DNA of 64,000 nt, taken from Microbulbifer sp. A4B17 (lineage in GTDB: Bacteria; Pseudomonadota; Gammaproteobacteria; Pseudomonadales; Cellvibrionaceae). The position numbers and the translations under genes are program-made. Under the pieces are notes generated by a model. The model saw only the letters and a list, made by a program, of their open reading frames with translations. It made no database searches and had not been told where the DNA came from. Each line of letters begins with the position of its first letter. Positions within the stretch are counted from its first letter, which is position 1. Positions 7,708 to 23,499 of the stretch are shown here, piece after piece. The stretch is taken from assembly GCF_003076275.1 (NCBI RefSeq), contig NZ_CP029064.1:1126501-1190500 (forward strand), read 5' to 3'.

Positions 7708-7924
7708 TAAACGTAGCCTTGCCTTGGAATACCATCAATACTGCAAACAGTGACACTAAAAACAACTTCTGCGGCTTATTTACACTAGACATCGAATTCA
7801 GAATTGTTTTTACTGGTGCTTCCATGGATAGAGTTCTGCGACTTTGTGAGAATAAACAGTCGCATTCTCGCAGTTTCTGTCCGTGGTTCCTACTCCTAGC
7901 AATCAAAAACTGTCCACAGTATTG
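7708..7924 (-). mobile_element. Relic of the DDE-transposase element found whole at 14728-16041 (5' end)
   Basis: Terminal repeat AAACTGTCCACAGTATTG at 7907-7924. Reading leftwards, the leader GGTAGGAACCACGG is followed by the first ~36 codons of the transposase (ATG at 7823-7825; LFAVLMVFQGKA shared with the other copy). It is cut at 7708 by the IS5-type relic. Its terminal repeat ends only nine bases before the start codon of the radical SAM gene. Confidence 0.75.
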
Positions 7925-7932
7925 ATATAACA

Positions 7933-9333
7933 ATGACTCAGACTAAAGAAGCTAGCCTTATTCCTGCAGAAATAATAAGCGCACTAGAAATAAATGACCC
8001 CGATGATCAAGCAGAATTTCATTCAATATATCAAGAAATTCCAGAGCAAGATAAGAAAGATTTAATTAAGTATGCCTCTTTAATGGGCTCTGGAGTTGCC
8101 AATACAACATTAAGCAATGTACCTGTTAGTGAAATTTTATCTGATAGCGAGCAAGAAAAGTATTCTAAGGAAAAGAATTCTCTAGACACAATCACGGTAG
8201 AGGATCTTAATATAAGCGGATCACATTTGGTTGCAGTCATGAAGGTAACACGCCTTTGCAATCTGAGGTGTTCCTACTGTCGCTCTTGGAGGGAGGGACC
8301 GAATCAAACAATGAAGTTTGAAACCATGTTGAAGGCGGTCAGTCAGGTGCTATCAATCCCAAATGTGAGCTCTATTGACTTTGTCTGGCATGGCGGTGAA
8401 GTAACGTTATTAAAGACGTCAATATTTAGAAAATTATTATGGTTACAAGAGAAGTTTAGAAGGCCCAACCAGAGAATAAAAAATACAATTCAAACAAATG
8501 CGTATTTAATTTCAGACGAATGGGCAAAGCTTCTCTCTGCATACAGCGTAACTGTAGGAGTTAGTATAGATGGCCCTCCAGAAATTAATGATAAGTATAG
8601 AAAAAATAAAGATGGTCTAAAAACATCAGAAAATATAGAGGAAGGGATAAAAAAACTAGGATCATATAATGTAGAGTATGGGGCACTTGTAGTAGTAGAG
8701 AAAGAAATTTTCGAAGCTGGCCCCAATAGACTTTTCGACTATTTTGACAATATTGGATTAAGGAAAATAAATTTTCTTAATGTTATTCCAGATATTTACG
8801 CCCAAGAGCATGTTCTAAATGACCAGAACTATATACCATACCACCTGTATATAGAATTCTTGTGTGACGCATTTCGTGTTTGGAAGCAAAAATACCGGGA
8901 GAAGCTTTTAATATCTGACTTTGAAGACTTGATGACAGCTATTAAAAATAAATCCAAGCCAAAAACATGTTTGTGGTCCGGCGATTGCCTTAAAAGTATC
9001 GTTACAATAGAGCCTGAAGGCACTGTAAACCCATGCGATAAATATATAGGAGGCAAGGATGTTAGCTATGGTTCAATTTTTGAAAGTAGCTTATCCTCTC
9101 TTATAAATAGATCTTCTTTTGTAGATATCGAAAATAAAAATTACCGTAACTCTATAAAGAATATGCATAAATGCAAGTGGAGTGGCATTTGCAACGGAGG
9201 ATGTCCGCACGATAGAGCGCTAGATGTAAAGTTTAAAAACAATATGGATCTGGAATGTTGTGGCCTATCACCTTTGTTAGAGCGAATTAACAATATGGTT
9301 TACTCTGATTCAGAGGGCCGTCACTCTGAATGA
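7933..9333 (+). CDS. Radical SAM/SPASM peptide-modifying enzyme of a RiPP cluster
   Basis: 466 residues. An N-terminal region (1-100) that could bind the leader peptide precedes the radical SAM core. The 4Fe-4S motif CNLRCSYC lies at 109-116, followed by DFVWHGGEVTL, typical of peptide-modifying members. The C-terminal third is a SPASM region with many Cys, including CLWSGDC, NPCDKY, CKWSGICNGGCPHD and ECCGL, expected to hold auxiliary clusters. Such enzymes form C-C, C-O or C-S crosslinks in precursor peptides. The likely substrate is the Trp-rich peptide encoded 48 bases downstream. The start is nine bases from an IS terminal repeat and has no good ribosome-binding site, so the natural promoter was probably lost or replaced. 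Family certain, chemistry inferred. Confidence 0.85.
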   Translation: MTQTKEASLIPAEIISALEINDPDDQAEFHSIYQEIPEQDKKDLIKYASLMGSGVANTTLSNVPVSEILSDSEQEKYSKEKNSLDTITVEDLNISGSHLVAVMKVTRLCNLRCSYCRSWREGPNQTMKFETMLKAVSQVLSIPNVSSIDFVWHGGEVTLLKTSIFRKLLWLQEKFRRPNQRIKNTIQTNAYLISDEWAKLLSAYSVTVGVSIDGPPEINDKYRKNKDGLKTSENIEEGIKKLGSYNVEYGALVVVEKEIFEAGPNRLFDYFDNIGLRKINFLNVIPDIYAQEHVLNDQNYIPYHLYIEFLCDAFRVWKQKYREKLLISDFEDLMTAIKNKSKPKTCLWSGDCLKSIVTIEPEGTVNPCDKYIGGKDVSYGSIFESSLSSLINRSSFVDIENKNYRNSIKNMHKCKWSGICNGGCPHDRALDVKFKNNMDLECCGLSPLLERINNMVYSDSEGRHSE

Positions 9334-9381
9334 TATTGAATTAATGGCGGAATCCTATAATTCTCTTGAGGAGATAACACA

Positions 9382-9573
9382 ATGGAAAACATGGCTACTA
9401 GTACTAGCAGCTCTTTCGAAAGAGTTTCAGCATTTTTGGCCGAAAGAAATAGCAAAGTTGCTAATCAGTTTAACGCGGTTGCTGAAGAGCCAACTGCTAA
9501 AGTTGATATTTCTGACGCTAAGGCTCCTGAAGCTAAATCACCTACTGCGTGGGGATGGGGCTGGCCCCTTTAG
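9382..9573 (+). CDS. RiPP precursor peptide with Trp-Gly-Trp-Gly-Trp-Pro-Leu core
   Basis: 63 residues, preceded by a strong ribosome-binding site (GAGGAG, spacing about 8). Residues 1-50 form a leader: Ser/Thr-rich start, then SFERVSAFLAERNSKVANQF, a likely helical recognition segment, then a charged Ala/Glu/Lys linker. The C-terminus is SPTAWGWGWPL. All three tryptophans of the peptide lie in this tail, alternating with glycine, which makes the tail the obvious core. W-x-W-x-(W/K/R) cores are known from darobactin-type peptides, and W-x-W is also a three-residue cyclophane motif. The stop is followed by a hairpin at 9582-9604. No peptidase gene is seen in the cluster, so leader removal would use a host or exporter-associated protease. 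Confidence 0.85.
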   Translation: MENMATSTSSSFERVSAFLAERNSKVANQFNAVAEEPTAKVDISDAKAPEAKSPTAWGWGWPL

Positions 9574-9581
9574 TCGTAATT

Positions 9582-9604
9582 GTCGGCGGGGCTTCCTCGC
9601 CGAC
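9582..9604 (+). terminator. Hairpin between the precursor and the downstream genes
   Basis: GTCGGCG...CGCCGAC arms enclose a short GGGCTTCCT loop, followed by only a weak T-run. Position directly after a precursor gene suggests partial termination or RNA processing, raising precursor over enzyme expression. Confidence 0.5.
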
Positions 9605-9635
9605 TATATTTCATATGGAGAATTTGTAATCCAAA

Positions 9636-10343
9636 ATGAAGAATTCTGAATACATATTGAGCTTAAATAATGAGTCCAGCTTGTCTGCAGAGTATTGTGG
9701 CGCAGTTAAATTTTTTGATTCCAACGAATTTTTAAGAACTTTAGAGGCGCTCGACAGTTCTATAGAGGTTTTATTTTCAAGCGCCCCATTAATGATAAAA
9801 AGACTTAAGCGTCACTCAGAACATGAGAAAAGTGGCTCTGACTTTATAAGGATGGTTTCAAGAAATATACATATAGGCGATACACTTAGAAAGGAGCTTA
9901 CCGAGCACGCAAATGATGAATTAAAGCATTCGCGTATGTTTAATGCATTGATAAAACATTTTGAAACCATTAATGATTATCACTCTAGATATGAATATGA
10001 GTATGATACCGATTCAGATGTAGAGAAATTTATGGGTGATGTTGATCTGTTTCTTATCTCAACACACTGTGCCGAGCTTAGAAATTTATTCATACTGAAC
10101 GGATATTTGGTACAAGAAAAATGTGGGGGAATGGCATTTCCATCATCATTTTATCCCGCAATCCATGAAATTCATAAAGATGAAATTAGGCATGTTGTAT
10201 ATACACAGGCTTATGTATCAAAGCTCGCATCGAACCCAGAGCTCCTTAGATATTTTAAGTTTTGCCTTGAGGACTATGAGGAGTTGTTATTGAAAGAGGT
10301 ATCTATCTCTATCGCTGCCATCCCTGAGAATGAAACGAAATAA
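9636..10343 (+). CDS. Ferritin-like di-iron protein in the RiPP cluster
   Basis: 235 residues, all-helical appearance. Two metal-ligand motifs are seen: E-H-A-N-D-E-L-K-H at about 90-98 and E-I-H-K-D-E-I-R-H at about 176-184. This E..(D)E..H pairing is the signature of ferritin-like or AurF-like non-heme di-iron proteins, which do hydroxylation, N-oxygenation or desaturation. A heme-oxygenase-like iron enzyme is an alternative. It lies 62 bases after the precursor and would belong to the same transcript. A tailoring role on the peptide is an inference. Confidence 0.6.
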   Translation: MKNSEYILSLNNESSLSAEYCGAVKFFDSNEFLRTLEALDSSIEVLFSSAPLMIKRLKRHSEHEKSGSDFIRMVSRNIHIGDTLRKELTEHANDELKHSRMFNALIKHFETINDYHSRYEYEYDTDSDVEKFMGDVDLFLISTHCAELRNLFILNGYLVQEKCGGMAFPSSFYPAIHEIHKDEIRHVVYTQAYVSKLASNPELLRYFKFCLEDYEELLLKEVSISIAAIPENETK

Positions 10344-10420
10344 ATATGGAGCTGTAGACTTAAGCTTTCAATAATGTCTAGGGGCAAGCTGTATGGATAT
10401 TCTTCATAATTTAGATATCG

Positions 10421-11098
10421 TTGCATGCTCTGTTTATATTTTTTTACAGCGGATCATTTAGCGCATTGCAAACATACAAAAATGAAAAACTAGAAGGCAG
10501 AAAAAATGAAGAAAGCATTCTTCATGTTTCTTTAAATTTGTATAAGAATCAAGAAAAGAAAGCCTCTGGAAAACCTATTAATATGAATATAGAATCGATA
10601 GGTAAGCAGTCTAGAGAATATTCCAACAACACAGAAGAACTAGAAAAAAAGATTGGAAATTCCATAGAAATAGATTCCCCTAAAATTATAGAAGAGAATG
10701 CACATCAAAAAAATACGTATGAAAAACACGAAAAGCATGGTGAATCTCACCACATTTATTTAAATAGAATCGATGATTCGATTCTATTTGGTGGTGATGA
10801 GGGCTGCAAGCAAGAAATGAGCTATAATAGCGTATTCGATCAAAGGCTACAGAGAAAAATCCAAGATTCAAAAAAAGCACATTTCACTTCACGGCCAAAA
10901 GAAATATATGAAAAAAGAATGGCCGTGAATGGGGGGCTAGTAATAACAGAGAAAGGTTGTTATGAATATAAAAAGCTACACACGCTCGATATCGATTCCA
11001 ATATTGCGCAACTATTTCGAATCAAATATGTTTTGCCCGATAATGGGGGAATAGATTTAAGTAAAAGTGAAAAGGAAAAGAGATTCAAACTCCCTTGA
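10421..11098 (+). CDS. Unknown protein with hydrophobic N-terminus, possibly frameshifted at its start
   Basis: 225 residues if started at the TTG at 10421, which has no ribosome-binding site. An ATG at 10393 with AGGGG upstream begins a hydrophobic peptide (MDILHNLDIVACSVYIFL) in another frame, and joining the two would need a one-base shift near 10450. The protein has an N-terminal hydrophobic segment, a long Lys/Glu/Asn-rich middle and a compact C-terminal ~60 residues (NGGLVITEKGCYEYKKL...). This layout recalls TonB-like proteins, but I cannot assign a family. Codons 115-123 contain a 28-base palindrome (10762-10789). It lies between the di-iron protein and the ABC exporter. Confidence 0.4.
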   Translation: MHALFIFFYSGSFSALQTYKNEKLEGRKNEESILHVSLNLYKNQEKKASGKPINMNIESIGKQSREYSNNTEELEKKIGNSIEIDSPKIIEENAHQKNTYEKHEKHGESHHIYLNRIDDSILFGGDEGCKQEMSYNSVFDQRLQRKIQDSKKAHFTSRPKEIYEKRMAVNGGLVITEKGCYEYKKLHTLDIDSNIAQLFRIKYVLPDNGGIDLSKSEKEKRFKLP

Positions 11099-11172
11099 GA
11101 ATTTGTAGAAATAGAAATGACTTCAGAAAGTTGTTGTTTTGGTCGTCATTCTAATGATATACGGGTTTTTAA

Positions 11173-13161
11173 TTGAATATTTTTGATTCTATAAGCAGTG
11201 GCCTGTCGTCCAATAAAAATACGGATCATTCCCACGCATCGGCAAACGATAATGGTAAAGAACGGTTTTTCCTGGAACAGACAGAGTTGGATTTTCAGCA
11301 TTCTCATAATGTCTGGAAAATTCTTTTACCATTAATAAGGCCACACTTGGGGCTCGCATTCAGCGCAGTTCTGATTTTGGCGGTTTCCTCTCTTGCAACT
11401 TTGGTTATGCCCTGGCTTGTAGGCGCCACTTTAGACGTTTTGTTTTCTGGGAAGATAATCGATAATGTTCCTGTACATCTCGCATGGCTCTTTGGTTTGG
11501 TTCTCCTTGTCGGATTCAGTTCTGCACTTCGTTCCTATTTAATGTCCGTATTGGGATACAAAGTAGCTGCCAACCTTCGTGAATCCTTCTACGCTATTAC
11601 AATGCGCAGACCAATGAGCTTCTTCGACAACCTACGAGCCGGAGATTTCGGTAGTAACATCATTGTCGATATCAACATTATTGGTAATTTTGTCGGCTCC
11701 AAAATTGCAACACTAGTCAAAGACGCAGCCTTACTTGTTGGTGGCATCACTCTCCTTATTGTTATGAGTGTGAAACTGGTGGCACTAGCTCTCTTAACAG
11801 TTCCCTTGGTGTTGTGCGTTCTTTATTTTTTTGGCCAGCTCGTTGCTAAAAGTTCGAAGTCAGCACAAGATGCCATGGCCAGATTGTTGACTAAAGCGAT
11901 TGTAAATCACGAAGCCGTGAGCAGCATCCGTGCTTTCGGACAGGAAAGAGCAGAAGCACTGCGCTTCTCGGACGCGATTTGGGATGCCTTCGAGAAACAC
12001 CGCATTTTGTGCAAATGGCGCGCAGTAATGAATGCGGCACTTACAATCCTTATTTTCAGCGCTATCGGGGTAATGATAGTAAAAGGCGCCATGGAAGTGG
12101 TGGCCGGTAGCATGACTGGTGGAGAAGTTGCCAAATTCATAGGGCTATCTGTAATTGTCGCATCCGCAATTGACTCCTTTCGAGAATTCTATGGGGAATT
12201 TCAGGCCGCAAAGGGGGCTATACACCGACTGTCCTCTCTATCGTTATCCGATCAAGAAACGTTAGAACCATCTCCAAAGTCTACAATAGTACCGTGGAAT
12301 CTAAAGCGACCCGATATAGAATTTCACAATGTCAGCTTCGCCTATCCTTCTAACCCTGAAAAGAAAGTTCTAAAAGAAGTAAACATTAGAGTCAATTCTG
12401 GTGAAACAGTGGCATTAGTAGGACCATCAGGCTGTGGGAAATCAACACTTTTCAAACTACTAATGAGGTTCTATGAGCCTCATTCAGGGGAAATTCTAAT
12501 TGATGGTAAATCAATAAATAAGCTAGACCCAAGATCTGTCAGGAGCCGGTTTGCTCTCATTCCTCAAGAAAGTCATATTTTTGGAGATACTGTTCTCGCT
12601 AATATTGGTTTCGGTAAACCTGATACAGATCTGAAAGCCATAAAACGCGCTACTAATCAGGCTGGCGCCAACAATTTTATCCGAATGCTACCTCAAGAGT
12701 TTTTAACTGTGCTCAGCGAGCGTGGCACGGACTTATCTGGCGGGCAGCGACAGCGGATAGCAATTGCTCGGGCTCTACTGCGAGATGCCTCTATCTTACT
12801 TTTGGATGAGGCTACTTCAGCGCTTGATGCAGAATCAGAGCAGCTCGTGCACAATGCCCTTAAGAAATCTAAGGCTGGTTGCACCAAATTGATAATCACT
12901 CATCGATTATCCACTATAAAAAATGTCGACCGAGTTATTTTGATGAATTCAGGTTGTGTCATCGATAGTGGAACTCACTCAGAACTTATTGAGCGCAATG
13001 CATTATATCAACGGCTGGCGAAGCTTCAAAACATCGTTGAGGCGACTTCGGAAAGTAAGGCGTTCGAAACGTGTGGTGTAACTACTACACCTTCGAGTGC
13101 CGAACCTAGAAAGATTATTCTAGGAGATGAGATTAAAAAATCGGAAGATCAGAGAACATGA
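11173..13161 (+). CDS. MsbA/HlyB-type ABC exporter (fused membrane and ATPase domains)
   Basis: 662 residues from a TTG start. Residues ~55-330 hold six membrane segments of an ABC type-1 exporter domain. The ATPase domain follows, with Walker A GPSGCGKST (~417-425), signature LSGGQRQR, Walker B ILLLDEATSALD and the switch His in ITHRLSTI. There is no N-terminal C39 peptidase domain, so it would not cleave the leader. It probably exports the modified peptide from the cytoplasm. It overlaps the monooxygenase gene by an ATGA. Confidence 0.85.
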   Translation: MNIFDSISSGLSSNKNTDHSHASANDNGKERFFLEQTELDFQHSHNVWKILLPLIRPHLGLAFSAVLILAVSSLATLVMPWLVGATLDVLFSGKIIDNVPVHLAWLFGLVLLVGFSSALRSYLMSVLGYKVAANLRESFYAITMRRPMSFFDNLRAGDFGSNIIVDINIIGNFVGSKIATLVKDAALLVGGITLLIVMSVKLVALALLTVPLVLCVLYFFGQLVAKSSKSAQDAMARLLTKAIVNHEAVSSIRAFGQERAEALRFSDAIWDAFEKHRILCKWRAVMNAALTILIFSAIGVMIVKGAMEVVAGSMTGGEVAKFIGLSVIVASAIDSFREFYGEFQAAKGAIHRLSSLSLSDQETLEPSPKSTIVPWNLKRPDIEFHNVSFAYPSNPEKKVLKEVNIRVNSGETVALVGPSGCGKSTLFKLLMRFYEPHSGEILIDGKSINKLDPRSVRSRFALIPQESHIFGDTVLANIGFGKPDTDLKAIKRATNQAGANNFIRMLPQEFLTVLSERGTDLSGGQRQRIAIARALLRDASILLLDEATSALDAESEQLVHNALKKSKAGCTKLIITHRLSTIKNVDRVILMNSGCVIDSGTHSELIERNALYQRLAKLQNIVEATSESKAFETCGVTTTPSSAEPRKIILGDEIKKSEDQRT

Positions 13162-14702
13162 AATATACTGTCATTATCCTTGGTGCTGGACCAGGTGGAT
13201 TACAGCTGGCCCATTTTCTTGAAAATACAAATATCGACTATTTAGTACTTGAAAGACACAATGAGGCGGGTAGTTTTTTTCGGAAACTGCCACGAGGTCG
13301 TAGATTAATCTCCATAAACAAACCCAATACAGGTTTCGAAAATTACGAGAAAAATTTACGATGGGACTGGAACTCCTTGCTTGGAGGTTGTGAAGATCCA
13401 CCCTTCAGCGATTATGACAATGAGTTCTATCCAAACGCCGACTCAATAGTGAGGTATCTTAACGATTTTACTGCTCGCCATTTCCTCAAAGTTCGGTTTG
13501 GTGAGGATGTCGAAGAGGTAACGCGTCAAGGCGACAACTTCCGCTTAAGAACCGGTGGTGGTAATACTTTCTCCTGCGATTATTTGGTAGTAGGTACGGG
13601 AGTAAGCAAAACCCACAACCCTCCATTTTCGGGCGCGGATCTAATCCCGTCATACACAGACTACTCCATGGATCCGGCAGTTTATACTAACAAGCGCGTG
13701 CTGGTAATTGGGAAAGGCAATTCCGCATTTGAAACAGCGAATTACCTACTTCCCTTTGCGAGCCACCTTCATTTGATTAGTCCGAATTATCTAAGGTCCG
13801 CAGCATATACCCACTTTTCTGGAGATCTTCGTTCCATAAACGCTACTTTTCTTGATACTTTTTTTCTGAAGCAACAAGGGGCTGTGTTAAATGGAACCAT
13901 AGAATCTATCACGCCCGTCGGAGAAGGCTACGAGGTTCAGGTTACTTATACCGAGAACTCGATGTCCGTTACTCTTTATTACGACAGGGTAATCAAAGCT
14001 ACCGGTTTTAGCTTCGATACATCAATATTTTCATCGGAATGCATGCCCGACATTGCACATGAGGAGCGTTTACCAGATATTACTTGCGAATGGGAAAGCA
14101 CTAACGTCAAGAAAATGTTCTTCGTCGGAACCCTTATGCAGGGCAATGACTATAAGAAATCCGCTTCAACCTTCATTGCCGGAATTCGCTACAATGCCAG
14201 AGCGCTGGGCTATTTTTTGAGAAAACGTATTACAGGCGAAGTATGGCCAGTCTCCTCAGTTCCATGCAAAGGTGAAGAGCTATATAAATCTATTTTTTCG
14301 AGAATTCACAATTCTTCTTCTCTCTGGCACCTTTTCGGCTGCATGTGTGATGCCTATGTTTATGACCCTGAGGGCAAAGTATATTTACATTATAGGAATA
14401 TCCCCAACCGTGTGGTGGATGAGCAGGAGCTATTCAAAGGAAGCATTGGCTTTACCCTACAGTTCGGATATCACTCTCCGAGAGATCCACAGGAGCGCAA
14501 GAAGTTCGATGACCATGGTTTCATCCATCCGATTGTCTGCCTTTGGAACGATGGACAGATCAAACGGGAAAGTCATATGCTGCTAGATGTCCATGCGGAA
14601 TGGGAGGACATGAATTTCTTCGGAAAGTCTTTGCAGCACCTTATTGAGGAATGCCATGATAGTCTGCCGGATTTGGAGCCTACTATGAGTAATCGCCAAT
14701 GA
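13158..14702 (+). CDS. Flavin-dependent monooxygenase (FMO/FOXRED2-like)
   Basis: 514 residues. An FAD-binding Rossmann motif GAGPGGLQLA lies at about 9-18, an NADPH-binding motif VIGKGNSAFETA at about 184-195, and an ATG-type motif ATGFSFD follows. The pattern RGRRLISINK near 50 resembles FOXRED2-type flavoproteins seen in natural-product clusters. Expected chemistry is NADPH- and O2-dependent hydroxylation or N-oxidation. It is translationally coupled to the exporter gene (ATGA overlap). An insertion sequence begins 25 bases after its stop and cuts the likely operon from the second transporter. Confidence 0.75.
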   Translation: MKYTVIILGAGPGGLQLAHFLENTNIDYLVLERHNEAGSFFRKLPRGRRLISINKPNTGFENYEKNLRWDWNSLLGGCEDPPFSDYDNEFYPNADSIVRYLNDFTARHFLKVRFGEDVEEVTRQGDNFRLRTGGGNTFSCDYLVVGTGVSKTHNPPFSGADLIPSYTDYSMDPAVYTNKRVLVIGKGNSAFETANYLLPFASHLHLISPNYLRSAAYTHFSGDLRSINATFLDTFFLKQQGAVLNGTIESITPVGEGYEVQVTYTENSMSVTLYYDRVIKATGFSFDTSIFSSECMPDIAHEERLPDITCEWESTNVKKMFFVGTLMQGNDYKKSASTFIAGIRYNARALGYFLRKRITGEVWPVSSVPCKGEELYKSIFSRIHNSSSLWHLFGCMCDAYVYDPEGKVYLHYRNIPNRVVDEQELFKGSIGFTLQFGYHSPRDPQERKKFDDHGFIHPIVCLWNDGQIKRESHMLLDVHAEWEDMNFFGKSLQHLIEECHDSLPDLEPTMSNRQ

Positions 14703-14727
14703 TGATTTTATGAAAAAATTCACTATC

Positions 14728-16041: not shown

Positions 16042-16140
16042 TAGAAGCTAAAGGTTAATCTTCTACTCTAGCGAAGTGATGTATCGGAATATGCGAAATG
16101 TAACTGCCCTGCGTTTTCAACAGATACCTGAGGAATTATA

Positions 16141-16836
16141 ATGTCGCAGAATATATTGTTTAAACTAAATGGAGTCAGTAAAAGTTTCATTAAAGGTGGA
16201 GAGAAACTATCTATATTTAGCAACCTAGATATGACAATAGAGAACGGTGATTTTGTCGCTATTATGGGACCTTCCGGATCTGGCAAAACTACACTGTTGA
16301 ACATGCTTGGCGGTGTAGACAAACCCACTGGCGGCGAGATCTTTTTCGAGAATGTTAGGGTAGAAAACCTAAGTGAAAGTCAACTCACCCATTGGCGTGC
16401 GCGCAACATCGGATTTGTCTTTCAGTTCTACAACCTTATGCCTATGCTTAATGCGTCGCGTAATGTGGAGCTTCCGCTATTACTCACCAATCTCTCTAAG
16501 GAACAGCGCCGCAGAAGTGTAGAGACGGCACTTGTGCTGATGGGGCTTTCTGATCGCGCCAAGCATATGCCCAATGAAATGTCCGGCGGACAGCAACAGC
16601 GGGTGGCTATAGCCCGCGCAATAGTCTCTGATCCAAAACTAGTTCTGTGTGACGAACCTACTGGAGATTTAGATCGCCAGACTGCGGATGAAATTTTGGA
16701 GATGCTCCAGCTTTTAAACCGTGAGCATGGAAAAACTATCGTAATGGTTACCCATGACCCTGCAGCAGCAGCTTATGCAAAGCGTACCCTACACCTGGAC
16801 AAAGGTAAGTTTATACAAAAGGAGCTAGTGGTATGA
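16141..16836 (+). CDS. LolD/MacB-type ABC transporter ATPase
   Basis: 231 residues. Walker A GPSGSGKTT (~43-51), a Q-loop in FVFQFYNLMPML, the signature MSGGQQQR and Walker B LVLCDEPTGDLD are all present. This class works with FtsX-type permeases and commonly exports antibiotics or peptides or handles lipoproteins. It overlaps the next permease gene by four bases. In darobactin-type clusters an ATPase and permease of this class export the peptide, which fits the role proposed here. Confidence 0.85.
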   Translation: MSQNILFKLNGVSKSFIKGGEKLSIFSNLDMTIENGDFVAIMGPSGSGKTTLLNMLGGVDKPTGGEIFFENVRVENLSESQLTHWRARNIGFVFQFYNLMPMLNASRNVELPLLLTNLSKEQRRRSVETALVLMGLSDRAKHMPNEMSGGQQQRVAIARAIVSDPKLVLCDEPTGDLDRQTADEILEMLQLLNREHGKTIVMVTHDPAAAAYAKRTLHLDKGKFIQKELVV

Positions 16837-17993
16837 GCGATTTCTATTTGATCTATAAAAATATGACCAGGAAGCCGTTGCGACTTTTTCTTACATGCTT
16901 TGCCATATCTATCGCTTTCCTGATCTTCGGAGCAGTTTCCACTCTTAAAGGTGCTTTGGATTCTCGTGTAGAACTTTCCGCGGAAAACCGTTTATTGGTT
17001 TTTAGCAAACTTAATTTTTCCGTACCGCTTCCTATCGCCCACTTCCAGAAAGTTAAGGCCATCGAAGGGGTAAAGGATATTACTCATATTACTTGGTTCG
17101 GCGCATATTATCAAGATCCTATCGAGCAGGTTGGAGCCTTTGCAGTCGACCCTGAGTCTTATCTGAAGGTATACGATGAACTAGAGGTGGATTCTAAACA
17201 GCGCCTTTCTTGGTTAGGCAACCGACAAGGTATACTGGTCGGGAAGAAATTAGCAGACCGCTACGGTTGGAAACCTGGAGACCGAATTCCTATATCGTCA
17301 AATATTTATTCCCACAGGAATGAAGGGAATACTTGGGACTTTGTGGTGGAAGGCATTTTTAATGCTTCTGATGAGCGAACAGATACAGGGAAAGCACTAT
17401 TTCACTATAAATATCTTCAAGAAACTGCCTCGTTCGATGGCGACAGTGTGAGTCGTCTATCATTGACTACTAAAAGCTCCTCGCTAAACGACAAGGTTTC
17501 CAAAAGCATCGACGACATTTTTTCCAACTCACCATATGAGACAAAAACGAGTTCTGAAAATGCCTTTTATAAAGAATACTTTGACCAAGTAGGCAACATT
17601 GGCCTGATTATTTTTGGCGTTGTGTCTATGGCTTTTCTTACCATTCTAATGGTCGTGGGCAGCACTATGGCTCTGGCCATCCGAGAGCGCACTGGTGAGA
17701 TAGCTGTGTTGAAAACCATAGGGTTCTCCAGCATCCGAGTATTTAAGATTGTATTATCAGAGTCTTTGCTGATTTCCATTCTCGGCGGGGCCAGCGGCTT
17801 ATTAGGGGCCTATTGCTTAATCCTCGGAGTTAGTGCCAATTGGGGCAGCTCCCTGCCTGGCTTGGTGATGCGTCCTGAAACACTACTGCAGGCCACTAGT
17901 TATATGCTGTTGCTGGGGTTGATTACCGGCCTGATACCGGCGCTCAATGCCCTACGTTTAAATATAGTTTCCGCTTTCAATATAGCGAGTTAA
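16833..17993 (+). CDS. FtsX/MacB-type ABC permease, first of two
   Basis: 386 residues. One N-terminal membrane helix (~17-40) is followed by a ~200-residue periplasmic domain and three C-terminal helices (~250-380) carrying the FtsX pattern AIRERTGEIAVLKTIGFSS. It pairs with the ATPase at 16141 and the second permease three bases downstream. No membrane-fusion (HlyD/MacA) gene is found, unlike typical MacAB or darobactin exporters. Confidence 0.8.
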   Translation: MSDFYLIYKNMTRKPLRLFLTCFAISIAFLIFGAVSTLKGALDSRVELSAENRLLVFSKLNFSVPLPIAHFQKVKAIEGVKDITHITWFGAYYQDPIEQVGAFAVDPESYLKVYDELEVDSKQRLSWLGNRQGILVGKKLADRYGWKPGDRIPISSNIYSHRNEGNTWDFVVEGIFNASDERTDTGKALFHYKYLQETASFDGDSVSRLSLTTKSSSLNDKVSKSIDDIFSNSPYETKTSSENAFYKEYFDQVGNIGLIIFGVVSMAFLTILMVVGSTMALAIRERTGEIAVLKTIGFSSIRVFKIVLSESLLISILGGASGLLGAYCLILGVSANWGSSLPGLVMRPETLLQATSYMLLLGLITGLIPALNALRLNIVSAFNIAS

Positions 17994-17996
17994 ATT

Positions 17997-19187
17997 ATGG
18001 GATCTTATTTTTTGCAAGTAATCGCTGTCGCGACGATGAATGTTCGTGGTCTCCCTCGCCGCCTGTGGATGTCGCTAGCCATGATTCTGGCCTCAGCTGT
18101 GGTTGTAGTAATACTGCTGGCTTTCCTAGCCATGGCTAAAGGGTTCGAGGCTACCATGAAAGGGGCAGGCTCTGACGACCTTGCAATTATCATACGTAAA
18201 GGTGCATCTGCCGAAATCAACTCGGTGATTACTCGAGAACAGTTAAGCCTGCTGACTGAGTCTCCTGGGATCGCTCGTGACACCAAAGGGCCTGATGTTT
18301 CTGCAGAACTCTATGTGAGTGTCAGCGGCACTAAGAAAGATTCTGGCTCTGAGACCAACATTCCTCTTCGAGGATTGGGAACTCGAGGTATGGCTATGCG
18401 GAAAAATATGCGCCTTGTAGCCGGGCATGTTTTTACTCCTGGGACCAATGAGATAATGGTAGGAGAAGGAGTATTACGAGAGTTTAATGGTTTTGAAATT
18501 GGGCAAGAAGTTCGTCTTGGTGAAAGTGTGTGGATTGTAGTTGGTATATTTTCTACCGGCGGCAACGTATTCGAAAGCGAGATTTGGGCGGATGCAAAGA
18601 TGCTTCAGAGCCTCTACAGCCGCGGTAGTGGCTACCAGATTGTTCGTGCAAGGCTGGGAGATTCTAGCGAATTAATACCTATAGAAAAAACTATTGAAGA
18701 AAATTCGCAGCTGAATAACCTTGACGTTAAAATTGAGTCCAGCTTTTTCATTGCTCAAAGTAAACAATTACAGTACATTGCTTGGTTTGGTCGAATCGTT
18801 AGTTACATTATGGCTGTTGGGGCTTTAGCAGGCGCGCTTAACACCATGTACACATCGGTGTCAGATAGGGCTCAGGAAATAGCCACTCTCCGCGCCTTGG
18901 GATTTAACAATTTCTCTGCATTTTTCGGCACACTCGTCGAGGCTGTGATGTTAGCAGTGGTGGGCGGCCTATTCGGTTCTCTCATTGCTTATATATTGTT
19001 TGATGGAATGAATGCCTCAACTCTTGGTGGTAGCTTTACCCAAGTGGCATTTAGTTTCGATATGACACTGGATCTGTTCATTCAAGGAGTGACTCTAGCG
19101 CTGACTATTGGCATTGTTAGCGGATTTTTCCCTGCTTGGCGTGCTGCGCGTATGCCGGTAGCATTAGCGTTTCGAAGAAATATGTAA
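17997..19187 (+). CDS. FtsX/MacB-type ABC permease, second of two
   Basis: 396 residues with the same layout: helix at ~22-45, a large periplasmic domain, then three helices including SVSDRAQEIATLRALGFNN, the FtsX consensus. The two permeases would form a heterodimer on one ATPase dimer. It ends 72 bases before the oxygenase gene. Confidence 0.8.
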   Translation: MGSYFLQVIAVATMNVRGLPRRLWMSLAMILASAVVVVILLAFLAMAKGFEATMKGAGSDDLAIIIRKGASAEINSVITREQLSLLTESPGIARDTKGPDVSAELYVSVSGTKKDSGSETNIPLRGLGTRGMAMRKNMRLVAGHVFTPGTNEIMVGEGVLREFNGFEIGQEVRLGESVWIVVGIFSTGGNVFESEIWADAKMLQSLYSRGSGYQIVRARLGDSSELIPIEKTIEENSQLNNLDVKIESSFFIAQSKQLQYIAWFGRIVSYIMAVGALAGALNTMYTSVSDRAQEIATLRALGFNNFSAFFGTLVEAVMLAVVGGLFGSLIAYILFDGMNASTLGGSFTQVAFSFDMTLDLFIQGVTLALTIGIVSGFFPAWRAARMPVALAFRRNM

Positions 19188-19259
19188 ACATTAACTAAAA
19201 AATTCTGAAATTTTAATTAGAGTCTTGCCTGATTATTATAGGCAACGAGGGTATAAACA

Positions 19260-19844
19260 ATGATCCCCCCTAATTCAACTGTGTTACTTGAAGAGAATTT
19301 TTTAACCATTCAGGAGTGCGATGAGCTAATTCAATCCAGCAGTCCTTATTTGGAGGAAGCTCTAATATATGATCGGAATTCGGAAAAGTACCAGACCCTG
19401 AAAGAATTCAGATCTTGTTGTCAGACAGTAGAGTACTTAGGTGACAAACATGAGGTTTTTGGCTCGGTTGCAATAAGAATAGCCAATTTACTGTGTGTCA
19501 GTCAGGAATTGTGTGAACCTGTCAAAGTTGTTCGCTATAGAAAGGGGGACTACTTCAGACCTCACTTCGATGCTTTTGGGAAGGATTATCTGGATGGTTT
19601 GGATGAATTTGACAAGCACGGGCAGAGAGTAAATTCGGTTATTATATATCTCAATGATGAGTATTCCGGTGGTGAAACCTATTTTCAAGAATTAGGTATT
19701 AAAATCGAACCTTCTAAAGGGGCTATGCTAATAATTAACAATGTCGATGGTAATGGAAATATTAATCCATTGTCATTACATGAAGGAAGGGAAATTACCA
19801 GCGGGGAAAAATGGATAGCGGTATGCTGGATCAGGGATAAGTAG
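19260..19844 (+). CDS. 2-oxoglutarate/Fe(II) oxygenase, prolyl-4-hydroxylase type
   Basis: 194 residues. The iron ligands are readable: H-x-D in RPHFDAFG (~100-107) and the distal His in LHEGREITSGEKW, where the Lys/Arg that binds 2-oxoglutarate also lies. VNSVIIYLNDEYSGGETYF between them is the classic P4H core. The enzyme would hydroxylate a side chain, for instance the Pro or Trp of the peptide core (inference). An IS5-type element is inserted just after it, 17 bases beyond the stop. Confidence 0.8.
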   Translation: MIPPNSTVLLEENFLTIQECDELIQSSSPYLEEALIYDRNSEKYQTLKEFRSCCQTVEYLGDKHEVFGSVAIRIANLLCVSQELCEPVKVVRYRKGDYFRPHFDAFGKDYLDGLDEFDKHGQRVNSVIIYLNDEYSGGETYFQELGIKIEPSKGAMLIINNVDGNGNINPLSLHEGREITSGEKWIAVCWIRDK

Positions 19845-19860
19845 TTACGGCATTTATTAC

Positions 19861-20713
19861 CTAGAAGCTGTTTCATAACTTAAAATCAGTTATTCTTACG
19901 GCCTCATGAAATGATAAGACCAGTAAGTGTGAGCAGATTTAAGTCAAAATTAACCGATGCTCAGTGGAAATTGATTGAGCCTTGCCTTCCTCAGTTAAAA
20001 CGTGGAAAAGGTGGCCTAAAACCCATTGACAACCGTGCTTGTTTTGAGGGTATCTTGTGGATTTAGCGTTCAGGAGCACGATGGAAGGACCTCCCTTCAT
20101 CTTATCCCTCGTCGAGTACTTGCTGGAGAAGACTCCAGTTGTGGGAAGAACAAGGCACTTGGCTGGAGGCTTGGCGAGAGTTTCTCGGATAGCTCGATCA
20201 CAAATCTCTGCTTAACTGGGAAGAAGTCTTTTCCGATGGCAGCTTTGCTTCAGTAAAAAAAGGAGGGCTGAAGTCGGAAAAACTAAGCAGGGCAAGGGTG
20301 CAAAGTGGATGGTGGGATGGCGAAGGTATTCCATTGGGAGGCACCGTTACTTCGGCCTCACCAGCAGAAGTAAAGTTATTGCATCCACTACTGGATGTTA
20401 CCTATAAAAATACAAAAATTCGACGCCTAATATACGACAAAGCTGCAGATTCGGATCTTTTACGATACAGCTTGGCCCGTCGTGAAATTGACCTGATTTG
20501 TCCCCACCGTAGGAACAGAAGAAAACCTTCTAAACAAGATGGCAGGAAGCTTAGAAGGTACGTGCGGTGTTGGAAAGTTGAGCGAACTTTTGCATGATTA
20601 GGAAACTACCGTCGCTTGGTCGTCAGGTGGGATCGCTATTTATCTTCTTACAGAGCTTTTTCTATATTGCCTGCATGTTGATTACGTTAAAGAAATTATG
20701 AAACAGCTTCTAG
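19861..20713 (+). mobile_element. IS5-family insertion sequence (decayed), ~850 bp
   Basis: Ends AAGCTGTTTCATA (19865-19877) and TATGAAACAGCTT (20697-20709) are inverted repeats flanked on both sides by CTAG, the 4-bp target duplication expected for this family. It separates the oxygenase from the N-acetyltransferase-like gene. Confidence 0.85.
19911..20698 (+). pseudogene. IS5-family transposase, frameshifted
   Basis: Starts MIRPVSVSRFKSKLTDAQW at 19911 and reads ...IEPCLPQLKRGKGGLKP, then an in-frame stop and frame changes near 20064-20270. The remainder (DGSFASVKKGG, LICPHRRNRRKP, VERTFA*LGNYRRLVVRWDR) carries the DDE-region blocks of small IS5-group transposases. Inactive. Confidence 0.8.
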
Positions 20714-21002
20714 TAACATCGGCATCCTCCCTGGGCAATTGACATTGGGGCTAACTCGGAGTTTATAGAGCCCTGAGAATTGTCTAGACGACTTGCAAAG
20801 TTCAGAACATTGTTAATTCGATGCAGGGGAATAAAGAGATTGAAGAGAACGATGCCAAGGCTGCACTCTCGAGTACTGATCTGGAAAGGTTGGGGAGAGC
20901 GTGAAATAAACTTGAACAACTGTAAGTCAGAAGTATAAAAAATAAACTATGCCGTAACAACAGCAGCGTCTACTGTCCATTTACACTGTCTATTACGATT
21001 CC
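20714..21002. other. Spacer between IS5 copy and N-acetyltransferase gene, nothing recognisable
   Basis: About 290 bases with only short open frames. A weak Arg/Lys-rich reading on the plus strand (KRLKRTMPRLHSR) might be the relic of a coding sequence but matches nothing I know. It presumably contains the promoter for the 21018-22955 genes. Confidence 0.4.
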
Positions 21003-21017
21003 GTGAAGGAGGAAGAC

Positions 21018-21743
21018 ATGGATATCGATGTTTATTTGGAGCGCATTGGATTTGAAGATGAGATCCGAATTGACTACAGAACTTTGTGTGCCCTTCAAAG
21101 GGCTCATATACTCAGCATTCCCTTTGAAAATATTGACATCCATCTCGGGCGGCCACTCAGTATGGAACCAGCCAAGGTATTTGATAAGGTGGTACTTGGT
21201 CAGCGGGGTGGATGGTGCTATGAATTGAACTTCCTTTTCGCCGCCCTCCTTAAGGAATTAGGTTTCAACGTCGAAATGGTTGGCATGCTCTCCATGCAGC
21301 TAATGAAAATCTCTCGCGAGCAAGTCGGAAAAGAACTACAGATACGTCACCCCGGGATTGCTGTAAACCTCGATTCCAGATATATCGCCGATGTCGGCAG
21401 TGGCGACGGCCCCCTGCAACCAATTAAATTCCCGGACGTTGACCCCAAGATTATCGGCCGAGTACCTCCGAATGACTTCACATTAGCAGCCGACTGGTTT
21501 CTGGAGTCACCTCTCTCTCCACACTTGAAGTCGGTGATTTGCGTTAGCGTTGATGAATCTACTGTAACTTCTCTTTTCGACCGGCAACTCCAGGAAGGAA
21601 AAATTTCTCGAGTTATTGAGTCTGCGGAAGATTTCGTCAACACACTTAACAAAAAAATCGGTATAGACCTGCCAGAAGCGGCAGGCTTGTGGCCTGACAT
21701 AGTGGCGCGCGATAAATCAGCTAAGGCGAGGGTGCCGGCGTGA
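21018..21743 (+). CDS. Arylamine N-acetyltransferase-like (NAT) acyltransferase
   Basis: 241 residues from the ATG at 21018, which follows AAGGAGG at ideal spacing (an in-frame GTG lies at 21003). Family motifs are PFENIDIHLGRPL (~37-49), the active-site Cys in RGGWCYELN (~65-73), His in RHPGIAVNL and Asp in YIADVGSG. This is the Cys-His-Asp triad of NATs. In antibiotic clusters NAT-fold enzymes such as amide synthases move carrier-bound acyl groups onto amines. Here the next two genes are a carrier protein and its aminoacyl ligase, so it probably transfers an aminoacyl group from the carrier protein to the peptide (inference). It overlaps the carrier gene by four bases. Confidence 0.75.
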   Translation: MDIDVYLERIGFEDEIRIDYRTLCALQRAHILSIPFENIDIHLGRPLSMEPAKVFDKVVLGQRGGWCYELNFLFAALLKELGFNVEMVGMLSMQLMKISREQVGKELQIRHPGIAVNLDSRYIADVGSGDGPLQPIKFPDVDPKIIGRVPPNDFTLAADWFLESPLSPHLKSVICVSVDESTVTSLFDRQLQEGKISRVIESAEDFVNTLNKKIGIDLPEAAGLWPDIVARDKSAKARVPA

Positions 21744-22009
21744 TATCGACTACAGACGATTGGGTCATAGCTCAAGTTCGGATGCTGGTAGGGCGCCACG
21801 CAGGGCTGTTGGTGTCGGCTGAAACGCTATCATTTTCTGACAACCTCTATGATGCAGGTATGAATTCCTTAGCCTCCGTTACATTATTGCTATCTCTTGA
21901 AGAAAGCTTCAATGTCTTTTTCCCTGATACAATGTTAAACCAAGAGACGTTTCAAAATTTGGGCAGTATCTGCAATGCTATTTCAAACTTAAGAAGAGAC
22001 ACGCTATGA
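21740..22009 (+). CDS. Acyl/peptidyl carrier protein
   Basis: 89 residues from a GTG that overlaps the previous stop. The four-helix carrier pattern is readable, with the phosphopantetheine Ser in YDAGMNSLASVTLLLSLEE (~34-52) followed by FNVFFPDTML. It needs a phosphopantetheinyl transferase encoded elsewhere. It is the expected partner of the aminoacyl ligase downstream. Confidence 0.85.
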   Translation: MISTTDDWVIAQVRMLVGRHAGLLVSAETLSFSDNLYDAGMNSLASVTLLLSLEESFNVFFPDTMLNQETFQNLGSICNAISNLRRDTL

Positions 22010-22040
22010 ACTCTTGTTACCTTAATGGAGCCTTCCCATC

Positions 22041-22955
22041 ATGCATGTAAAGACGCCGATCTCATTTCGTGAGAAGTTATTCAATGCCGGACTTCTAATT
22101 GAGACAGAAGTTAAAGGGATTTACGGATTCAGTGAAGGCTTTAATTACGTCATCCGATTTATTGACAATATTGTCAGTGAAATGGGTTTCAAAGACAATG
22201 CTCAGTCTGTCCGTTTCCCACCGGTAATTAAGCGAAGCTTAGTAGAAAGGTGTGGATATCTCGAGAAATTCCCCCATCTCGCCGGCACAGTGTACAGTTT
22301 CTGCGGTGATGACTGCGCACATGCACAGATGCAGTTGGCGATGGCTGCCGGCGACGATCCAACGAATTTCCAGCAGCCAACCGATGTTATGTTGACACCA
22401 GCTGCTTGCTATCCAATCTATCCAATGATCTCTGAACTCAGTCCTCTACCGCAAGGAGGGGTTGTCTTTGATGTGCAGTCCACTTGCTATCGTAATGAAC
22501 CCTCAGATGATCCTGTACGCATGCAATCTTTCCGCATGCGCGAGTATGTACGAGCAGGCGAAGAGATGGAGGTCCTGGAATTCCGAAACGTCTGGATGAG
22601 GCGCGCACAGGAATTCTGCAGTGAGCTTGGTCTCGACTTTGAAATCAAGGTGGCGAATGATCCCTTCTTCGGTCGTAGCGGCCGTCTCCTTGCCGATAAC
22701 CAACGTAAGAACTCGCTCAAATACGAACTTCTTATCCCAGTTTCGAATTGGGAAGAGCCAACTGCCTGCGCGAGTTTTAACTACCATGAGGACCATTTCG
22801 GTGAAATTTGGTCGATTCGTACTGCTACGGGCAATGTGGCGAAGAGTGCATGCGTCAGCTTCGGTTACGAGCGTCTTGCTCTCGCTCTCATCGCTCATCA
22901 TGGCACTAGTATTAACTCTTGGCTCCCTGCATCCGTGCGGGCAGGAATGGTGTGA
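22041..22955 (+). CDS. Amino acid:[carrier protein] ligase (SerRS-like class II synthetase fold)
   Basis: 304 residues, starting ATG 22041. A truncated class II synthetase core without tRNA-binding domains is seen: motif 2 as TCYRNEPS...FRMREYVR (~151-171), motif 3 as VSFGYERLALAL (~282-293), and zinc-ligand candidates Cys (~150), Glu in EEMEVLEF, and Cys in ACASFN. This matches the amino acid:carrier-protein ligases related to atypical archaeal SerRS, which adenylate a small amino acid (Gly or Ala in studied members) and load it on a carrier protein's phosphopantetheine. The adjacent carrier gene supports this. The amino acid used cannot be read from the sequence. Confidence 0.85.
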   Translation: MHVKTPISFREKLFNAGLLIETEVKGIYGFSEGFNYVIRFIDNIVSEMGFKDNAQSVRFPPVIKRSLVERCGYLEKFPHLAGTVYSFCGDDCAHAQMQLAMAAGDDPTNFQQPTDVMLTPAACYPIYPMISELSPLPQGGVVFDVQSTCYRNEPSDDPVRMQSFRMREYVRAGEEMEVLEFRNVWMRRAQEFCSELGLDFEIKVANDPFFGRSGRLLADNQRKNSLKYELLIPVSNWEEPTACASFNYHEDHFGEIWSIRTATGNVAKSACVSFGYERLALALIAHHGTSINSWLPASVRAGMV

Positions 22956-23006
22956 GATAAATATTCACTCTCGATACTAGCGATGAGATGTGAATACAGT
23001 TGTCGA

Positions 23007-23276
23007 TCAGCATATGCGTAACGAAATCTCATTGCCGTTATCAGAGAAAAATTGCGTGGAGATATACCCATTTTTAGGATCTCGAACATATTGGGTATAT
23101 TTAGGGTATGCACCTGACGATATGACTACCATTGCCTCTTCCGCCAAATATGGCTCGAGTATTTGTAAAATCGGAAGTCGATCTGCTGGCGATCCATCCA
23201 AGAATACCATATCAATTTTGCATGGCAATGGTAAGCGAAGAGTCTCGAATGCATCCCCATGCCTAATTTCAATTAG
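23007..23276 (-). pseudogene. Class I methyltransferase, 5' part removed by an IS
   Basis: The C-terminal ~88 residues of an O-methyltransferase-type protein: an AFETLRLPLP segment, IDMVFLDGSPAD (the Asp that follows strand 4), LEPYLAEEAMVVIS. The SAM-binding N-terminal half is missing because IS5-type sequence begins at about 23277. It is convergent with the ligase gene and marks the broken right edge of the biosynthetic cluster. Confidence 0.7.
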
Positions 23277-23307
23277 GGAACCTCTGATCAACGAAGTATC
23301 TTTCTAG

Positions 23308-23359: not shown

Positions 23360-23499
23360 TTCGCGTAATAGCTCTCTGGTTTTTCACCTGAAGTCCTCAA
23401 TAGGCGGATTTCAGGCGCACCACCCCTAGGTAGCCAAGTATTTTCTCCCTATTAGTAAGTTGGTAAAGCCTGCTAGCAAGCACAGCCGCTCAGTATTTT

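What the first reader, a model, noticed from the sequence alone, without database searches (positions are those of the whole stretch)
7933..23276. Apparently undescribed RiPP gene cluster with unusual combination of tailoring enzymes
One run of plus-strand genes contains a radical SAM/SPASM enzyme, a Trp-rich precursor, a ferritin-like di-iron protein, a flavin monooxygenase, a 2-oxoglutarate oxygenase, two ABC exporters, a NAT-like acyltransferase, a carrier protein and an aminoacyl:carrier-protein ligase. I know each family, but not this combination. The product would be a crosslinked, oxidised and possibly aminoacylated peptide.
Basis: partly seen in the sequence, partly recalled or inferred. 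Interest (0 to 1): 0.93.

Follow-up and report, generated by a model that had tools for sequence, protein, structure and literature searches.

The report
Darobactin-like cluster with Trp-rich core
An island in a bacterial genome carries a distant relative of the genes for the antibiotic darobactin, with a new tryptophan-rich peptide (WGWGWPL) and extra enzymes that would likely oxidise it and add an amino acid, so it is a lead to a possible new darobactin-like compound that is still untested.

Summary
The radical SAM/SPASM gene (7933-9333) belongs to the darobactin-maturase family (best NCBIfam models DarW and DarE, both below their cut-offs) and groups with four unnamed relatives. The next gene (9382-9573) encodes a DarA-like precursor: Phe at -27, Glu at -36 and Thr-Ala before the core match known DarA leaders, although BLAST finds no significant similarity. 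Its core, WGWGWPL, has Trp where bicyclic darobactins have the crosslinked Lys/Arg. So this is a divergent daropeptide cluster rather than an unknown RiPP class. The other genes are real: a prolyl-4-hydroxylase homologue, a flavoprotein, a possible di-iron protein without relatives, and a NAT-carrier protein-aminoacyl:carrier-protein ligase trio. They are not one run: two IS remnants split them into three blocks of uneven composition, inside an island that appears to interrupt a group II intron copy. Likely mechanism: Trp1-Trp3 (perhaps also Trp3-Trp5) crosslinking, Pro6 hydroxylation, further oxidation, N-terminal aminoacylation, export. All chemistry is inferred. The same gene set turned up nowhere else in what was searched. 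New variant of a known kind.

The parts
7505..24439 (.). Island that appears to interrupt one copy of a repeated ORF-less group II intron sequence: a left part ends at 7504 and a right part begins at 24440; about 370 nt of the copy are missing between them
   Evidence: blastn of the intact copy 5340-6080: query 12-155 at 7361-7504 and query 523-733 at 24440-24649; alignment
7933..9333 (+). DarE/DarW-family radical SAM/SPASM enzyme, 466 aa; CNLRCSYC motif and 9 further Cys
   Evidence: NCBIfam DarW 485 bits, DarE 476 bits, both below cut-off 650; Pfam Radical_SAM and SPASM over cut-off; tree; motifs
9382..9573 (+). DarA-like precursor, 63 aa; leader 1-56, core WGWGWPL 57-63, no follower
   Evidence: F(-27) in 7 of 7 precursors compared, E(-36) in 6 of 7, TA at -2/-1 in 5 of 7; no significant BLAST/phmmer hit to DarA in L010 or L087; no relative in the protein database
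9582..9604 (+). Hairpin after the precursor stop (10-bp stem, 8 G-C pairs); possible attenuator or processing site
   Evidence: (z = -2.24 for the 81-nt stretch)
9636..10343 (+). Possible ferritin-like di-iron protein, 235 aa, orphan; ExxH at 95-98 and 183-186, E147
   Evidence: motifs; Pfam DUF455 E 0.089 and COQ7 E 0.17, below cut-off; no other hit in the protein database or in 57 other related genomes
10421..11098 (+). 225-aa protein of unknown function, TTG start; a stretch near its C-terminus (about 135-213) resembles small proteins of the same genus
   Evidence: hits in 5 of 57 other genomes, best 2.6e-6
11173..13161 (+). MsbA-type ABC exporter (permease-ATPase)
   Evidence: TIGR02204 562 bits, below its cut-off; 25% identical to the exporter next to darE on a Vibrio plasmid, E 2e-37
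13158..14702 (+). FAD/NAD(P)-binding flavoprotein, monooxygenase-like, 514 aa
   Evidence: Pfam Pyr_redox_3 145 bits; start overlaps the exporter stop
14703..16140 (+). Degenerate IS-like stretch between blocks A and B; shares sequence with 7716-7927
   Evidence: (DDE_5, E 0.008, below cut-off)
16141..16836 (+). LolD/DarD-type ABC ATPase
   Evidence: LolD 228 bits, DarD model 221 bits, both below cut-off
16833..17993 (+). FtsX-type permease 1
   Evidence: Pfam FtsX and MacB_PCD over cut-off
17997..19187 (+). FtsX-type permease 2
   Evidence: Pfam FtsX and MacB_PCD over cut-off
19260..19844 (+). Prolyl-4-hydroxylase-like 2OG-Fe(II) oxygenase, 194 aa; H102xD104, H174, K184
   Evidence: Pfam 2OG-FeII_Oxy_3; PDB 3itq, E 6.7e-20 over residues 10-192; motifs
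19861..20713 (+). IS remnant with 21-nt terminal inverted repeats and a transposase fragment
   Evidence: (DDE_Tnp_1, E 2e-4, just below cut-off)
21003..21743 (+). NAT-family acyltransferase, 246 aa; C72, H116, D130; C-terminal part divergent
   Evidence: Pfam Acetyltransf_2 118 bits, profile 3-118 of 240; PDB NATs and the NAT-fold protein GdmF
21740..22009 (+). Carrier protein, predicted phosphopantetheine site Ser43 (DAGMNSL)
   Evidence: NCBIfam PRK07081 75 bits, cut-off 72
22041..22955 (+). Amino acid:[carrier protein] ligase, 304 aa; C123, E168, C271
   Evidence: NF005479 412 bits, cut-off 357; PDB 4h2w, E 4e-79
23273..23452 (-). IS-like arm, inverted partner of 7530-7710
   Evidence: 75% identity over 182 nt

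Best explanation
The island carries a divergent darobactin-type gene set whose DarE-family radical SAM enzyme would likely crosslink the tryptophans of a DarA-like precursor with the core WGWGWPL, after which a prolyl-4-hydroxylase homologue, a possible di-iron protein, a flavoprotein and a NAT/carrier-protein/ligase trio are predicted to decorate the peptide before ABC export. Proposed order: (1) the rSAM enzyme binds the leader through the E(-36)/F(-27) segment and links Trp1 to Trp3 through oxygen, as DarE does, and possibly Trp3 to Trp5, since Trp occupies the place of the Lys/Arg that DarE crosslinks (inferred). (2) The 2OG oxygenase hydroxylates Pro6, the only core proline (inferred). 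(3) The di-iron protein and the flavoprotein oxidise an indole or a backbone/beta position (inferred, site unknown). (4) The leader is cut off after Thr-Ala by a host protease (inferred; no protease gene was recognised in the cluster). (5) The ligase loads a small amino acid, probably Gly or Ala (recalled specificity of the family), on the carrier protein and the NAT-fold enzyme transfers it to the freed Trp1 amine (inferred). (6) The MsbA-type and LolD/FtsX-type transporters export the product and may give self-protection (inferred).
For: rSAM: DarW 485 and DarE 476 bits against 226 for sulfatase maturase and 188 for DynA; 40-45% identity to the hits that a source names DarE or DarW; in a tree of 125 rows it sits with P0002 (SH-aLRT 99) and P0003, P0060, P0063 (99), in an unresolved fork together with the DarW rows and the 52-row set that holds the named DarE proteins. 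Precursor: 48 nt after the rSAM gene; F(-27) in 7 of 7 precursors compared, E(-36) in 6 of 7, TA at -2/-1 in 5 of 7, heptapeptide core starting W.W. DarE chemistry, including the ether to a Trp or Phe at position 3, read in PMC9055067. P4H: PDB prolyl-4-hydroxylases, HxD-H-K intact. Ligase over cut-off and aligned to carrier-protein ligase 4h2w; NAT Cys-His-Asp present and GdmF among its PDB relatives. NAT, carrier protein and ligase are packed head to tail. An MsbA-type exporter also follows darE on a Vibrio plasmid and lies near the Gilvimarinus homologue.
Against: The rSAM misses both cut-offs of 650, so substrate and bond may differ. The precursor has no significant BLAST or phmmer match to the DarA ORFs of L010 and L087 and is 20-25% identical in alignment; its leader has three Phe, so one at -27 alone is weak. 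Core position 5 is Trp: the second ring has no precedent in the cores I read, and authors of engineered darobactins suspect that changes at positions 2 and 5 can hinder bicyclisation (PMC10726357, passage). Two IS remnants split the genes and composition differs (rSAM, di-iron protein and 225-aa ORF 33-37% GC; exporter, flavoprotein, ATPase and permeases 44-47%; 2OG enzyme 39%; NAT and ligase 48-49%), so blocks B and C may not serve this peptide. None of the tailoring genes was found in the 6 rSAM loci examined. Homologues of flavoprotein, 2OG enzyme and NAT occur in related genomes without the rSAM gene, and the own genome has a second NAT elsewhere. The di-iron protein could not be modelled (mean pLDDT 38); hits to unrelated TruD (E 0.024) and PDB 3ok8 (E 0.05) are as good as its ferritin-like ones. 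The NAT family match covers only its N-terminal part.
Confidence: 0.5

Rival explanations
1. Only block A (rSAM, precursor, perhaps di-iron protein, exporter and flavoprotein) is a daropeptide cluster; the LolD/FtsX/P4H block and the NAT/carrier/ligase block are unrelated passengers gathered by IS elements in the same island.
For: IS remnants at both block borders; GC rises from 33-37% (rSAM, di-iron, ORF225) to 48-49% (NAT, ligase); ligase, P4H and NAT families occur without daropeptide genes in other genomes.
Against: All 13 genes share one strand and stay open although the IS-like stretches between them are decayed; the NAT/carrier/ligase trio lacks the partners seen on the two plasmid records looked at (acyl-CoA dehydrogenase and DUF1839), so it looks re-purposed; the core offers a proline to the P4H.
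Confidence: 0.3
2. A relic: a once active daropeptide island that is now silent or decaying among IS and intron remnants.
For: IS and intron remnants in and around it; no cluster regulator recognised; the rSAM gene is absent from the 57 other related genomes searched; the NAT is divergent in its C-terminal part.
Against: The cluster ORFs are open throughout and those with known active-site motifs keep them; the precursor has a ribosome-binding site and a downstream hairpin.
Confidence: 0.12
3. The rSAM enzyme makes C-C cyclophane links between Trp and a neighbouring residue, as triceptide maturases do, rather than a darobactin-type ether.
For: The enzyme lies outside the DarE group in the tree and the product chemistry of its clade is unknown; Gly at positions 2 and 4 leaves only Trp, Pro and Leu as partners.
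Against: Scores fall to 188 bits for DynA and to 145 or less for the cyclophane models AmcB, YhhB, GrrM and XyeB; leader and core layout follow DarA.
Confidence: 0.1

Closest known systems
Darobactin/daropeptide clusters (DarA-DarE; Photorhabdus, Yersinia, Vibrio, Pseudoalteromonas)
   Same: rSAM/SPASM of the same family, 43% identical to DarE of Photorhabdus and Vibrio; DarA-type leader positions and a heptapeptide core starting W1-x-W3; a LolD/DarD-type ATPase
   Different: Core WGWGWPL with W5 and P6 where bicyclic darobactins have K/R5; no DarB- or DarC-like protein recognised (DarB comparisons E 3.5 or worse, DarC 4.4 or worse); extra oxygenases and an aminoacylation trio, absent from the Vibrio plasmid locus and from the five-gene cluster described in PMC8694152 (passages)
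DarW-type maturases (Myxococcus; NCBIfam NF041300)
   Same: Best-scoring NCBIfam model, 485 bits; 45% identity to the Myxococcus protein P0019 over 78% of the query
   Different: Below the cut-off of 650; separate branch in the tree; DarW gene neighbourhoods and products could not be examined here
Photorhabdus asymbiotica cluster IV daropeptide (core WT(F/Y)RF) of PMC9055067
   Same: Daropeptide cluster without DarBCD that carries an N-acetyltransferase gene (Fig. 7 legend), a loose parallel for N-acylation
   Different: Pentapeptide core; no carrier protein, ligase or oxygenases mentioned in the text read
Amino acid:[carrier protein] ligase operons (Rhizobium binae and Azospirillum brasilense plasmids)
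   Same: Same ligase family with a carrier protein gene close by
   Different: There the partners are an acyl-CoA dehydrogenase and DUF1839; here a NAT-fold acyltransferase (0 of 27 other ligase loci had a NAT within about 1.5 kb)

Membership tests
Daropeptide (darobactin family) | rSAM/SPASM enzyme homologous to DarE | tested here: met
   DarE model 476 bits, E 1e-142; 43% identity to DarE of Photorhabdus and Vibrio over about 86% of the protein
Daropeptide (darobactin family) | Score above the DarE (NF038005) or DarW (NF041300) cut-off | tested here: not met
   476 and 485 bits against 650 for both
Daropeptide (darobactin family) | DarA-type leader positions in a small ORF next to the rSAM gene | tested here: met
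   F(-27) in 7 of 7, E(-36) in 6 of 7, TA at -2/-1 in 5 of 7
Daropeptide (darobactin family) | Significant sequence similarity of the precursor to DarA | tested here: not met
   no BLAST hit at 1e-3 or phmmer hit at 0.01 to the DarA ORFs in L010 and L087; 20-25% identity
Daropeptide (darobactin family) | W1-x-W3 (or W1-x-F/Y3) at the start of the core | tested here: met
   WGWGWPL
Daropeptide (darobactin family) | Lys or Arg at core position 5 (bicyclic darobactins) | tested here: not met
   Trp at position 5
Daropeptide (darobactin family) | DarBCD-type exporter with periplasmic adaptor | tested here: not met
   ATPase resembles LolD/DarD, but no DarB- or DarC-like protein recognised; cluster IV also lacks DarBCD
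Daropeptide (darobactin family) | Aromatic-aliphatic ether crosslink in the product (the published definition) | not testable with these tools
   needs expression and MS/NMR
Amino acid:[carrier protein] ligase | NF005479 cut-off, Zn-binding Cys/Glu/Cys, carrier protein next door | tested here: met
   412 bits against 357; C123, E168, C271 align with residues of 4h2w that I recall as its Zn ligands; carrier protein at 21740
Prolyl-4-hydroxylase | 2OG-oxygenase match with HxD...H...K | tested here: met
   H102, D104, H174, K184; substrate not testable
NAT/amide synthase | Cys-His-Asp triad | tested here: met
   C72, H116, D130
NAT/amide synthase | Match over the whole family profile | tested here: not met
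   Pfam profile 3-118 of 240 only
Ferritin-like di-iron oxygenase | Significant family match and four-helix di-iron site | tested here: inconclusive
   two ExxH motifs and E147, but Pfam E 0.089 and 0.17, unrelated hits as good, and a model of pLDDT 38

The most novel reading that the evidence does not exclude
A third daropeptide branch makes a ladder of Trp-Trp links (W1-W3 and W3-W5, possibly both ethers) on WGWGWPL, hydroxylates Pro6, and then extends the ribosomal peptide at its N-terminus with an amino acid delivered by a tRNA-synthetase-like ligase, a carrier protein and a NAT-fold amide synthase: a RiPP finished by carrier-protein chemistry.
Probability: 0.25. Interest if true: 0.82.

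Novelty: new variant of a known kind. Interest (0 to 1): 0.62.

Why it matters
Darobactins are leads against Gram-negative pathogens, and the bicyclic native cores that I read keep Lys/Arg at position 5, in clusters for which the passages read name no tailoring enzyme beyond DarE. A relative that puts Trp at position 5 and brings oxygenases and an aminoacylation module would show how far the DarE reaction can be stretched and would give ready-made enzymes for varying the scaffold. It would also give the aminoacyl:carrier-protein ligases, whose products I know of in few pathways (recalled), a testable acceptor.

Tried and rejected
Considered and rejected: sulfatase maturase or other cyclophane maturase (scores far lower). 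A second precursor: one search listed five open frames of 20-140 codons with W.W between 7000 and 24000; besides the precursor only a 21-codon frame at 23169 in the IS-like right end finishes on W.W (AWQW), and it was not taken as a gene. The alternative-frame ORF 9344-9649 over the precursor: no ribosome-binding site seen before it, while the precursor start has GAGGAG (sequence).

The class search gave one further hit (G1032, 215 bits) whose short locus L090 shows no DarA-like ORF among those listed (80 aa or more) and which I read as sulfatase-maturase type. Only 6 of the 78 loci from other organisms held at that time were searched for the cluster's other genes. Literature searches listed no paper that I recognised as describing a WGWGW or Trp-5 daropeptide or this gene set; the library holds open-licence papers only, and most listed papers were seen as listings.

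Full report
WHAT IS THERE. They form three packed blocks: A, 7933-14702 (rSAM, precursor, possible di-iron protein, a 225-aa ORF, MsbA-type exporter, flavoprotein); B, 16141-19844 (LolD-type ATPase, two FtsX-type permeases, 2OG oxygenase); C, 21003-22955 (NAT, carrier protein, aa:CP ligase). Degenerate IS-like stretches separate them (14703-16140; 19861-20713 with 21-nt terminal inverted repeats; the transposase matches are weak and below Pfam cut-off).

THE ENZYME IS DAROBACTIN-FAMILY. NCBIfam scores the rSAM protein at 485 bits for DarW and 476 for DarE, both below the cut-offs of 650, against 226 for sulfatase maturase and 188 for dynobactin DynA. The database search gave 402 proteins at E <= 1e-40, of which 120 were listed; the hits that a source names DarE or DarW are 40-45% identical, and the best hit other than the window itself is an unnamed protein at 53%. 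In a quick tree of 125 rows (the 120 listed proteins, the window's own among them, and five loci) the window protein groups with P0002 (99) and with P0003, P0060 and P0063 (99), apart from the Myxococcus DarW rows and from the 52-row set that holds the named DarE proteins; the order of these branches is not resolved.

THE PRECURSOR IS LAID OUT LIKE DarA. The 63-aa peptide starts 48 nt after the rSAM gene and ends ...KSPTA-WGWGWPL. Comparison with DarA from P. asymbiotica (two), Vibrio crassostreae, P. thracensis, Pseudoalteromonas luteoviolacea and Yersinia massiliensis shows Phe at -27 in 7 of 7 (window included), Glu at -36 in 6 of 7, Thr-Ala at -2/-1 in 5 of 7 (Asn-Ala and Thr-Thr in the others), and a heptapeptide core that begins W-x-W (the last three sequences are from the table of PMC8694152, passages). 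Against this: the window leader has three Phe; identity is only 20-25%; BLAST and phmmer gave no significant match to the DarA ORFs of L010 and L087; and the protein database holds no close relative. Leu at position 7 has a precedent in the darobactin F precursor (WKWSKNL). Trp at 5, Pro at 6 and Gly at 2 and 4 have none among the cores shown.

WHAT THE OTHER GENES ARE. The 2OG enzyme matches prolyl-4-hydroxylase chains in the PDB over nearly its whole length (E 6.7e-20) with H102, D104, H174 and K184 in place. The ligase exceeds its family cut-off and aligns with aa:CP ligase 4h2w. The carrier protein just exceeds its cut-off (75 against 72 bits). The NAT has its Cys-His-Asp triad but matches the family profile only at 3-118 of 240; GdmF, a NAT-fold amide synthase that I recall as taking acyl groups from a carrier protein, is among its PDB relatives, which makes transfer of an aminoacyl group from the carrier plausible. 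The possible di-iron protein has two ExxH motifs and E147 but no significant family match, unrelated weak hits that are as good, no homologue and no usable model. The flavoprotein has 39-40% identical homologues in two genus relatives, in another context in the one examined at length. The 225-aa ORF shares a stretch near its C-terminus with small proteins of the same genus.

HOW RARE. The rSAM gene was found in 1 of 58 genomes of relatives (E <= 1e-40), 1 of 390 of the order (1e-50), 1 of 398 of the phylum (alignment query, 1e-70) and, with one distant further hit, 2 of 369 of the class (alignment query, 1e-60); each count includes the window's own genome. The ligase family is in 1 of 58 relatives and 28 of 398 of the phylum. 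Of 27 other ligase loci, each with about 1.5 kb of flank, 15 have a carrier protein and 0 a NAT, P4H, flavoprotein, di-iron or rSAM homologue. On two annotated plasmids, picked from the 15 of 60 records listed, the ligase sits between an acyl-CoA dehydrogenase gene and DUF1839. None of the window's tailoring genes was found in six rSAM-homologue loci (some of these contigs are short).

AN ISLAND. The cluster appears to interrupt one of several copies of a repeated group II intron sequence: an intact copy (5340-6080) matches 7361-7504 with its first part and 24440-24649 with its last part, about 370 nt of it being missing. Two partial copies that merely flank the cluster are not excluded. IS-like arms 7530-7710 and 23273-23452 lie inverted towards the two ends. 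With the absence from relatives this speaks for gain by transfer. Composition is uneven (rSAM 36.5% GC, ligase 49%), so the blocks may have different histories; this is the main weakness of the single-pathway reading.

MECHANISM. The DarE reaction (ether between Trp1 and Trp/Phe3 with oxygen from water, then C-C to Lys/Arg5) is taken from PMC9055067 (part 1 of 5 of the text, passages, and part 1 of 2 of section 8 read). By analogy Trp1-Trp3 is likely linked; whether Trp5 takes part is open, and a passage of PMC10726357 suspects that changes at positions 2 and 5 can hinder bicyclisation by DarE. Pro6 is the only core proline and the natural candidate substrate for the P4H homologue. The carrier trio would add an amino acid to the free amine left by leader cleavage; the published cluster IV with an N-acetyltransferase gene is a loose parallel. 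BamA as target is possible but unsupported: position 5 loses its positive charge.

VERDICT. Not an unknown RiPP class, but a divergent daropeptide-type cluster with a new core and a combination of tailoring genes that I found nowhere else in what was searched. The core claim (DarE-type enzyme plus DarA-type precursor) I hold at about 0.8; the complete tailoring scheme at about 0.5.

Noticed in passing
window 2033-39945: Many copies of an ORF-less group II intron sequence (10 RF02001 and 6 RF01998 matches, all + strand) alternate with short minus-strand genes, like a gene-cassette array.
   Followed up: partly
window 35515-39022 (-): Three adjacent genes match Lamassu defence proteins LmuB, LmuC and LmuA in PADLOC; the next gene upstream (39952-41823) matches candidate defence model PDC-S71.
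   Followed up: partly
L011 (Gilvimarinus chinensis) about 6107-6217: Overlapping the end of a 36%-identical rSAM gene lies a small ORF ending SSSWTWRF, resembling the WT(F/Y)RF cores of cluster IV daropeptides; possible further daropeptide with an ABC exporter nearby.
   Followed up: partly
L087 (Vibrio crassostreae plasmid p1) 7216-8937: A darobactin cluster on a plasmid typed as conjugative carries an extra full ABC exporter after darE, 25% identical to the window's MsbA-type exporter.
   Followed up: partly
L110 and L111 (two relatives of the same genus): Homologue of the cluster flavoprotein followed by two genes that I read, without a family search, as an alpha-hydroxy-acid oxidase and a cytochrome P450: a different, unstudied oxidative pathway (L110 examined; the L111 region only through its inner part L100).
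   Followed up: partly
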